Source: Nitrospinota bacterium
GTDB lineage: Bacteria; Nitrospirota; Nitrospiria; Nitrospirales; UBA8639
Reading direction: 5' to 3'
NCBI GenBank assembly: GCA_022572725.1
Contig: JACZVJ010000006.1
Location: 1 to 54,446 of the forward strand
DNA: 54,446 bases
Shown here: piece by piece, positions 17,679-52,094 of the stretch
Layout: the number at the start of each line of letters is the position of its first letter
How positions within the stretch are numbered: position 1 is the first letter of the stretch
The notes under the pieces: model-generated
What the model saw: only the letters and a program-made list of their open reading frames with translations
Databases searched by the model: none
Told to the model about the DNA's origin: nothing
Program-made: the position numbers and the translations under genes

Positions 17679-17780
17679 CGGGGCCAGGTGATCCTGCGGC
17701 ACCCAGACTCGCCCGCTTACCGTTGCTTCCTTCCGGACCTGGCGGGATTCACAGGATTCTGTTGCACAGGGCCCAGCCCC
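17679..17780 (-). ncRNA. ffs: Signal recognition particle RNA (4.5S, small bacterial type)
   Basis: On the minus strand the sequence CCAGGTCCGGAAGGAAGCAA (reverse complement of about 17722-17742) is the universal SRP RNA apical loop that binds Ffh. The flanks pair to a long hairpin, with GGGGC near 17776-17780 facing GCCCC near 17680-17684, giving about 100 nt as in the short bacterial form. With Ffh it targets nascent membrane proteins. It lies between tRNA-Ser with its tail element and dnaX, all on the same strand. Ends are good to a few bases. Confidence 0.93.
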
Positions 17781-17879: not shown

Positions 17880-18133
17880 TGGCGGAGAGGGTGGGCATTC
17901 GAAGTCGCGCTCCAGACTTCGCCCGCGCTCCCGCTCGGGGGCCTGCCCCGCAGGGTGCAAGAGCACCCTGCTTTCCCAGGGGCTCCGCCCCTAGGACGGC
18001 CCCAACTACGGGGCCTATGACCCCTCGAAGGGGGAACACCCCCTTCAGGACCCCCGTTCGAATCCCACCCTCCACATTCCAGTCTGTGATTTCTGATCTG
18101 GTTCCAACCCAAGTCGTATTGCCACTGAAGTTG
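17880..18133 (-). repeat. tRNA-tail element behind tRNA-Ser(GGA)
   Basis: Read on the minus strand from the tRNA end: a 61-nt spacer (18133-18073); an inverted copy of the tRNA's own T-loop, T-stem and start of the acceptor 3' strand (18072-18056, 17 of 17 bases); a core of 152 nt (18055-17904); and a direct copy of the tRNA 3' end including CCA (17903-17880, one extra G). The core holds perfect hairpins: GAAGGGGG-TGTT-CCCCCTTC (18027-18046), an 18-nt palindrome (17998-18015), AGGGGCGGAGCCCCT (17978-17992), a 9-bp stem (17950-17971) and CGAAGTC/GACTTCG (17900-17921). The same plan recurs at 51883-52094. Reading frames across it are chance products of the GC-rich palindromes. Confidence 0.75.
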
Positions 18134-18223
<90 letters not shown>

Positions 18224-51797: not shown

Positions 51798-51882
51798 GCC
51801 GAAGTGGTGGAATTGGTAGACACGCACGTTTGAGGGGCGTGTGGGGAAACCCTTGCGGGTTCGAGTCCCGCCTTCGGCACCA
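51798..51882 (+). tRNA. tRNA-Leu(GAG)
   Basis: An 85-nt class II tRNA with encoded CCA. Acceptor GCCGAAG pairs with CTTCGGC, the anticodon loop is TTGAGGG (GAG), the variable arm is long, and the T-arm is GCGGG-TTCGAGT-CCCGC. It is followed by a tail element that copies part of it twice. Confidence 0.95.
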
Positions 51883-52094
51883 TTTGCTTAACAGCTGAGA
51901 ACGAAATCCATCACCAGAAGCAAACCCATCAACAAAAAGAATAAAGGCGGGACTCGAACTGGGGGTTCTGAAGGGGGAATACCCCCTTCATGGGGTGACC
52001 GAAACGAAGTGAAGGCACGAGGGGGCTTGGCCCCTTAGTGGGAGCATGAGCTGGGCTTCGGCTCATGCGACTTCGAGTCCCGCCTTCGGCACCA
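51883..52094 (+). repeat. tRNA-tail element behind tRNA-Leu(GAG)
   Basis: From the tRNA end: a 61-nt spacer (51883-51943); an inverted copy AAGGCGGGACTCGAAC (51944-51959), exactly complementary to this tRNA's T-loop/T-stem and the first acceptor bases; a 112-nt core (51960-52071) with hairpins GAAGGGGG-AATA-CCCCCTTC (51970-51989) and GCATGAGC/GCTCATGC (52044-52068); and a direct copy of the tRNA 3' end TTCGAGTCCCGCC... to CCA (52072-52094, 23 of 23 bases). Both the tRNA and the copy are followed by TTAAC within about ten bases. The same plan is seen at 17880-18133. Confidence 0.8.

What the first reader, a model, noticed from the sequence alone, without database searches (positions are those of the whole stretch)
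17880..18133. A second member of the same tRNA-tail family behind tRNA-Ser(GGA)
On the minus strand the order is tRNA end, 61-nt spacer, 17-nt inverted copy of tRNA-Ser's own T-arm, 152-nt core, and a direct copy of the tRNA-Ser 3' end with CCA (one extra G). The spacer length equals that of the tRNA-Leu copy, while the spacer sequence does not. The core opens with the same block, GGGGGTYCT then GAAGGGGG-N4-CCCCCTTC, and ends with the same GCGACTTCGA. The rest of the core differs and is made of other perfect hairpins. The arms match tRNA-Ser here and tRNA-Leu there, so the element adapts its ends to its host tRNA.
Basis: seen in the sequence. Interest (0 to 1): 0.85.

Follow-up and report, generated by a model that had tools for sequence, protein, structure and literature searches.

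The report
tRNA-tail repeat with host-matched arms
Behind two tRNA genes of this Nitrospirales bacterium sits a small gene-free module that folds into hairpins, starts with a reversed copy and ends with a forward copy of its own tRNA's tail, and is built like the long-known but poorly understood rtT repeats of E. coli.

Summary
Confirmed and real. It belongs to a family of gene-free units found only in Nitrospirota among 84,980 named genomes (44 stretches, exact pattern; one record is titled Nitrospinota). Of 77 distinct loci, 69 lie behind a tRNA. The arms follow the host tRNA far beyond chance (score 960, permuted maximum 808). The core folds on the tRNA-sense strand with compensatory changes. 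In 21 sister genomes one tRNA-Ser is empty, filled or decayed.

The layout is that of the E. coli rtT repeats: tRNA, about 60 nt, reversed tail copy, hairpins, tail copy with CCA, in tandem. At E. coli serX, four strains carry 0, 1, 3 and 4 units, set in an 80-bp duplication of tRNA tail plus flank. The Nitrospirales core is not recognised by Rfam's RtT model.

A single-contig carrier with eight cores has no reverse transcriptase, no Y1 transposase and only XerC/XerD-type tyrosine recombinases, so how units move is open. Verdict: a new variant of a known kind.

The parts
18134..18223 (-). host tRNA-Ser(GGA), intact, with encoded CCA
   Evidence: ARAGORN; Rfam RF00005
18073..18133 (-). 61-nt spacer (length conserved, sequence not)
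18056..18072 (-). 17-nt inverted copy of the tRNA-Ser T-loop, 3' T-stem and start of the acceptor strand
   Evidence: arm test
17905..18055 (-). hairpin core; begins GGGGGTCCTGAAGGGGG, ends GCGA; its middle is shared with the Gly(GCC) element of the same genome and with a dispersed repeat
17880..17904 (-). direct copy of the tRNA-Ser 3' end from the T-loop to CCA, one extra G
51798..51882 (+). host tRNA-Leu(GAG)
51883..51943 (+). 61-nt spacer of the Leu unit
51944..51959 (+). 16-nt inverted copy of the tRNA-Leu tail
51961..52070 (+). hairpin core of the Leu unit
52071..52094 (+). direct copy of the tRNA-Leu 3' end with CCA

Best explanation
It is a gene-free tRNA-tail unit of the same kind as the rtT repeats of E. 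coli, with a different core. Inferred life cycle: (1) A hairpin core, flanked on both sides by copies of the tRNA T-arm/acceptor region, is placed about 60 nt behind a tRNA, and the stretch from the T-loop to that point (about 80 bp) ends up on both sides of it; the tRNA stays intact. (2) Unit number then rises and falls by recombination or slippage between the tRNA-tail copies, giving tandem arrays and exact empty sites. (3) Because the tail copies are shared among isoacceptors, whole units can also move to other tRNAs and genomes; the inverted arm is refreshed from the tRNA it sits behind. (4) The unit is read with the tRNA as a structured RNA whose 3' end mimics the tRNA tail with CCA, as rtT RNA is. 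Shown: layout, arm matching, sense-strand structure, empty/filled/tandem states, and in E. coli serX the 80-bp duplication and alleles with 0, 1, 3 and 4 units. Inferred: the insertion chemistry, the refreshing of the arm, transcription and processing in Nitrospirales, and any benefit to the host.
For: Layout behind tRNAs in 69 of 77 loci. Arm matching. Covariation: hp1 3 of 9, outer hp2 3 of 3, hp3 5 of 6 pairs with a change on both sides; 91% of cells paired, shuffles at most 86.6%, slid versions 37-59%; in the core helices 22 G-T against 4 A-C cells. One tRNA-Ser(CGA) in 21 sister genomes: 7 filled (4 with one core type, 3 with another), 4 remnants, 10 empty, classed by eye. Tandem units: three near-identical at tRNA-Gly of G010. 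A recent copy within a genome: L081 and L128 of G045, two different tRNA-Ser, core distance 0.026. The same layout in E. coli: tyrV spacer 59 nt, inverted GGGGAAGGAT, 19-nt direct copy, three 178-bp units; serX and three of four arg tRNAs; serX with 0, 1, 3 and 4 units in four strains inside a duplicated 19+61 nt stretch. Core better conserved than spacer in 38 of 38 same-tRNA pairs. Ser and Leu spacers are unrelated (identity 0.506 against 0.498 for shuffles, genus g3), yet the CCA-to-core distance is 73-83 in 39 of 52 class II units.
Against: The flank-equals-spacer sign of a duplication is clear in only 10 of 51 Nitrospirales units, and several of those are tandem units; in g15 the spacer is unrelated to the flank of empty sites, so there the whole unit, spacer included, was gained. 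Rfam's RtT model does not recognise the family. The high conservation of the core over its spacer fits host selection as well as mobility. In the E. coli scan only tyrV's inverted copy beat its shuffles; serX (11 against a maximum of 12) and the arg loci did not. No expression data were available.
Confidence: 0.5

Rival explanations
1. Host RNA device: the trailer of the pre-tRNA carries an antisense of the tRNA's own T-arm, and the direct copy downstream competes for it, so that tRNA maturation or read-through to the next gene is controlled; inheritance is mainly vertical.
For: The inverted copy follows the tRNA, not the direct copy: 30 of 40 class II direct copies carry 1-2 extra bases, and the inverted copies align to the tRNA without a gap in 51 of 52. 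In the predicted fold of the Ser transcript the inverted copy pairs with the tRNA itself, in the Leu one with the direct copy. Core conserved. Same-genus same-tRNA cores are closest (0.093). In the window the SRP RNA gene follows on the same strand.
Against: Patchy presence in sister species and two core types at one tRNA; varying unit number at one E. coli locus; a recent copy between two tRNAs.
Confidence: 0.2
2. Integron-like cassette: the tRNA T-arm is the attachment site and the folded inverted/direct pair with its extra bases is an attC-like single-strand site used by a tyrosine recombinase.
For: Direct copy starts in the T-loop and runs to CCA; extra bases at a fixed place of the paired arms; tandem units with decayed distal ones (L077, L069).
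Against: Single-contig genome G010 with eight cores has two tyrosine recombinases, of XerD and XerC type; both are far below the integron-integrase cut-off of 265 bits, at 117 and 123 bits. T-loop GTTCGAA does not fit the recalled attC box GTTRRRY.
Confidence: 0.13
3. RNA-mediated copying: the released RNA with a tRNA-like CCA end is reverse-transcribed and pasted behind tRNAs, SINE-like.
For: The inserted stretch in g15 runs from just after the tRNA CCA to the CCA of the direct copy; in E. coli the annotated rttR RNA ends at that CCA.
Against: No RVT_1 protein in 6 of 8 element-bearing genomes examined, among them the two single-contig genomes G010 and G016.
Confidence: 0.07
4. REP/BIME-like hairpin mobilised by an IS200/IS605-type Y1 transposase.
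For: The core modules also occur in a dispersed repeat of the own genome with other ends; a paper notes that elements similar to rtT belong to BIME repeats (PMC2965389, passages read).
Against: Y1_Tnp absent from G010, G016, G002, G013, G020, G025 and G033, all element-bearing.
Confidence: 0.05

Closest known systems
RtT / rttR repeats of the E. coli tyrT-tyrV region (Rfam RF00391)
   Same: tRNA, about 59-nt spacer, inverted copy of the 3' T-stem, hairpin core, direct 19-nt copy of the tRNA end with CCA, tandem units; arms differ with the tRNA at Tyr, Ser (serX) and Arg loci.
   Different: Core sequence unrelated by Rfam's model (best own-genome match 16.3 bits, gathering 45, and not at one of the four tRNA-tail elements). 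The Nitrospirales arms are longer (about 14-17 nt), include the T-loop, and also occur behind Leu, Gly, Met, Ala and tmRNA.
Integron gene cassettes (attC arrays)
   Same: Head-to-tail units bounded by a short site, folding single strand, extra bases in the arms.
   Different: No gene, no integron integrase in G010, site is a tRNA tail.
Genomic islands integrated at tRNA 3' ends
   Same: Direct copy of the tRNA end from T-loop to CCA, tRNA kept intact.
   Different: About 185-250 bp, no integrase, plus an inverted copy.
REP/BIME and MITE-type intergenic repeats
   Same: Palindromic, gene-free; shared hairpin modules in the own genome.
   Different: Ends are host tRNA sequence, position fixed behind tRNAs, no Y1 transposase in several carriers.

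Membership tests
RtT (RF00391) | Covariance model score at or above gathering (45 bits) | tested here: not met
   0 of 7 Nitrospirales genomes reach it; one element (G045 C256) at 15.9 bits. E. coli serX reaches 46.3.
RtT (RF00391) | Direct copy of the tRNA 3' end with CCA closing each unit | tested here: met
   51 of 64 units with at most 5 edits
RtT (RF00391) | Tandem units about 180 bp long | tested here: met
   Gly(GCC) of G010, three units 183-190 bp apart; most loci have one recognisable unit
RtT (RF00391) | Released stable RNA ending at the CCA | not testable with these tools
   no expression data
Integron cassette | attC consensus boxes and an IntI integrase | tested here: not met
   G010 has only XerC/XerD-type recombinases; box consensus recalled, not searched
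Y1-transposase (REP/RAYT, IS200/605) element | Y1_Tnp protein in the carrier | tested here: not met
   absent in seven element-bearing genomes
Retroelement / SINE-like | Reverse transcriptase available in the carrier | tested here: not met
   absent in 6 of 8 carriers examined
tRNA-integrated genomic island | Integrase within or next to the unit | tested here: not met
   units are 185-250 bp with no gene; G010 has only two PF00589 proteins, XerC/XerD type

The most novel reading that the evidence does not exclude
rtT-type tails are a general class of mobile RNA/ssDNA module in at least two phyla that needs no enzyme of its own: the T-arm present in every tRNA serves as annealing arm, each landing copies fresh arms from the new host tRNA (self-retargeting), and a constant geometry of about 80 bp from T-loop to landing point is set by replication or transcription of the tRNA gene.
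Probability: 0.22. Interest if true: 0.85.

Novelty: new variant of a known kind. Interest (0 to 1): 0.6.

Why it matters
The rtT repeats of E. coli have, as far as I know, lacked an account of where they come from. An independent family in another phylum, with an unrelated core but the same spacing, the same tail copies and arms tuned to each tRNA, suggests that the layout rather than the sequence is what is selected or what the process imposes. The unit-number and empty-site variation at E. coli serX gives a laboratory system in which gain, loss and arm renewal can be measured directly.

Tried and rejected
Dispersed repeat: further copies of the middle of the Ser(GGA) core (21 matches in all; read) first suggested a transposon whose terminal repeats had been swapped for tRNA arms. 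They are kept as related hairpin modules only: their ends (TAGCAGGCTGTTGAAAAA and complement) are not tRNA-like, and the canonical tRNA-tail core of the relatives lacks that middle.

Spacer as a CRISPR-transposon-type guide distance: dropped, since the spacer equals native flank at E. coli serX, and the inverted copy lies inside the unit.

Cargo genes between the two halves: at Ser(TGA) several left halves run into other genes; no matching right half was found within 20 kb in L108 or L109, so these are read as truncated units, not as cassettes. L096/L110 (1 kb with reading frames between two left halves) stays unexplained.

Survey of 30 other tRNAs in G010: none has a direct copy; Ser(GCT) has an inverted copy only. 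Met(CAT) and Gln(TTG) also beat their inverted-copy shuffles with 10-base matches ending near +280 and +298, taken as chance.

Literature: searches listed no paper whose title or abstract start describes such units in Nitrospira. Only passages of PMC4986893 and PMC2965389 were read; the rest were search listings. Bosl and Kersten 1991 was not held and is cited through those passages; the 1970s work on tyrT is recalled.

Not done: viral contigs, phage and plasmid collections were not searched; no structure was predicted.

Full report
What is there. The finding is exact to within one base. On the minus strand, tRNA-Ser(GGA) (18223-18134) is followed by 61 nt, a 17-nt reverse complement of its own T-loop/3' T-stem/acceptor start, a 151-nt hairpin core and a 25-nt direct copy of the tRNA end with CCA and one extra G. 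The Leu(GAG) copy at 51883-52094 has the same plan with its own arms. The block GAAGGGGG-N4-CCCCCTTC is found twice in the window, 0.10 expected.

Own genome. Two more tRNA-tail copies lie behind Ser(GCT), cut by a contig end, and Gly(GCC). The middle of the Ser(GGA) and Gly(GCC) cores is 94% alike and recurs in a dispersed repeat with other ends that is not at tRNAs.

Distribution. An exact core pattern in 84,980 named genomes gives 44 stretches, all titled Nitrospirae, Nitrospirota, Nitrospirales or Nitrospira except one titled Nitrospinota. In 269 genomes of the class 43 match; in 59 relatives 22 match a related pattern. The pattern misses other core types, such as the one in L228, L235 and L238, so these are lower bounds. 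Of 77 distinct loci 69 lie behind a tRNA on the same strand: Ser 50, Gly 10, Leu 7, Met 1, Ala 1. Of the other eight, three are the dispersed type, three are cut by a contig or locus end, one (L127) is separated from its matching tRNA-Ser by about 25 kb, and one (L213) has no tRNA.

Arms. In 64 units the inverted copy was compared with 34 distinct tRNA ends. Own tRNA best or tied in 52; sum 960, permuted mean 739, maximum 808 in 5,000; control stretches from the start of the spacer score 4.7 on average. At variable T-arm positions of class II tRNAs 277 of 306 agree, permuted maximum 243. These permutations do not correct for relatedness of the genomes. In class I hosts (Gly, Ala, Met) the inverted copy covers the 5' T-stem and loop instead. 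The inverted copy follows the tRNA rather than the direct copy: 30 of 40 class II direct copies have 1-2 extra bases that the inverted copy does not mirror. Twelve units fit another tRNA better, for example L128.

Structure. In 37 class II units the helices covary (14 of 31 pairs with changes on both sides, arms included), and wobble cells in the core helices favour the tRNA-sense strand, 22 G-T against 4 A-C. This points to the sense RNA or top strand as the folded molecule; the cells are not independent events. The arm columns in that alignment pair poorly (158 of 225 cells Watson-Crick), partly from misalignment. RNAalifold's covariation term was small on either strand.

Gain, loss, tandem. 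At one tRNA-Ser(CGA) with a conserved downstream gene in 21 genomes of genus g15 I classed by eye 4 filled with one core, 3 filled with another, 4 remnants and 10 empty. The direct copy of a filled site (L230) joins flank that follows the tRNA directly in an empty one (L236). Tandem units occur at Gly(GCC) of G010 (three) and at Ser loci, with decayed distal units in L077 and others. L081 and L128, two tRNA-Ser of one genome, differ by 2.6% in the core. Against free movement, cores at the same tRNA within a genus are closer (0.093) than cores at different tRNAs of one genome (0.143, seven pairs), so most copies look inherited.

Spacing. Spacers of Ser and Leu units are no more alike than shuffled sequence, but the CCA-to-core distance is 73-83 in 39 of 52 class II units; in the others it ranges from 19 to 115.

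The known relative. E. coli K-12 tyrV shows the same order: CCA, 59 nt, GGGGAAGGAT, hairpins, AATCCTTCCCCCACCACCA, three units of 178 bp, annotated rttR and matched by Rfam RtT at 133-138 bits. The same layout follows serX and three of the four arg tRNAs; it is not seen behind serT, serW, serU, leuX, leuZ, leuU, tyrU, thrT or proM. In that scan the direct copies beat all shuffles, but of the inverted copies only the tyrV one did. In the serX region, 60 rows spread over 5,400 matching records include spans of 1041, 860, 679 and 498 bases, steps of 181; four alleles read in full have 0, 1, 3 and 4 units. There the spacer is the native flank: 19 nt of tRNA tail plus the next 61 nt stand on both sides of each core. 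In Nitrospirales the same sign is clear in L202 and L069; over all units 10 of 51 flanks resemble their spacer, including tandem ones.

Enzymes. G010 is a single-contig genome in which eight cores were read. It has no Y1_Tnp, no RVT_1 and two tyrosine recombinases; the first passes the XerD cut-off, the second scores best with XerC, just under that cut-off. Other carriers have more integrases (up to 14 PF00589 matches in G033), so an enzyme supplied elsewhere is not excluded.

Judgement. By what it is built like, this is an rtT-type tail. By membership, it fails the RtT model. Its function and mode of movement are not shown. Host selection on an RNA and mobility are not exclusive, and the data support some of both.

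Noticed in passing
L146/L147 (G016 C1, about 1850870-1876010): About 25 kb lies between tRNA-Ser(CGA) and its matching tail unit; it codes for a caspase-domain protein, a WD40-repeat protein, a patatin-like protein and a weakly NACHT-like protein, possibly a defence island; no integrase was recognised by eye.
   Followed up: partly
L248 1330-1545 (G045 C146): Group I catalytic intron at 51.8 bits, followed by a tRNA-like 3' end with CCA.
   Followed up: partly
L010-L022 of the own genome; L196 of G061: Dispersed palindromic repeat with ends TAGCAGGCTGTTGAAAAA / TTTTTCAACACCCTGCTA and a core sharing modules with the Ser(GGA) tail; its mobilising enzyme was not sought.
   Followed up: partly
L096 / L110 2440-3420: About 1 kb with reading frames between two left halves behind tRNA-Ser(TGA) of G002; could be a gene-carrying unit.
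   Followed up: no
L083 (G023 C83): Left half at tRNA-Ser(TGA) followed directly by what looks like an AbrB-type antitoxin gene (read by eye).
   Followed up: no
window 17679-17778 -: The SRP RNA gene follows the Ser(GGA) unit on the same strand; SRP-like sequence, judged by eye, also follows at L091 and L102, so the order looks old.
   Followed up: no
class I units, e.g. L133 1499-1587: The 3' part resembles a tRNA (Rfam tRNA-Sec at 22 bits, below gathering): AGCGGGA can pair with the acceptor strand of the direct copy.
   Followed up: partly
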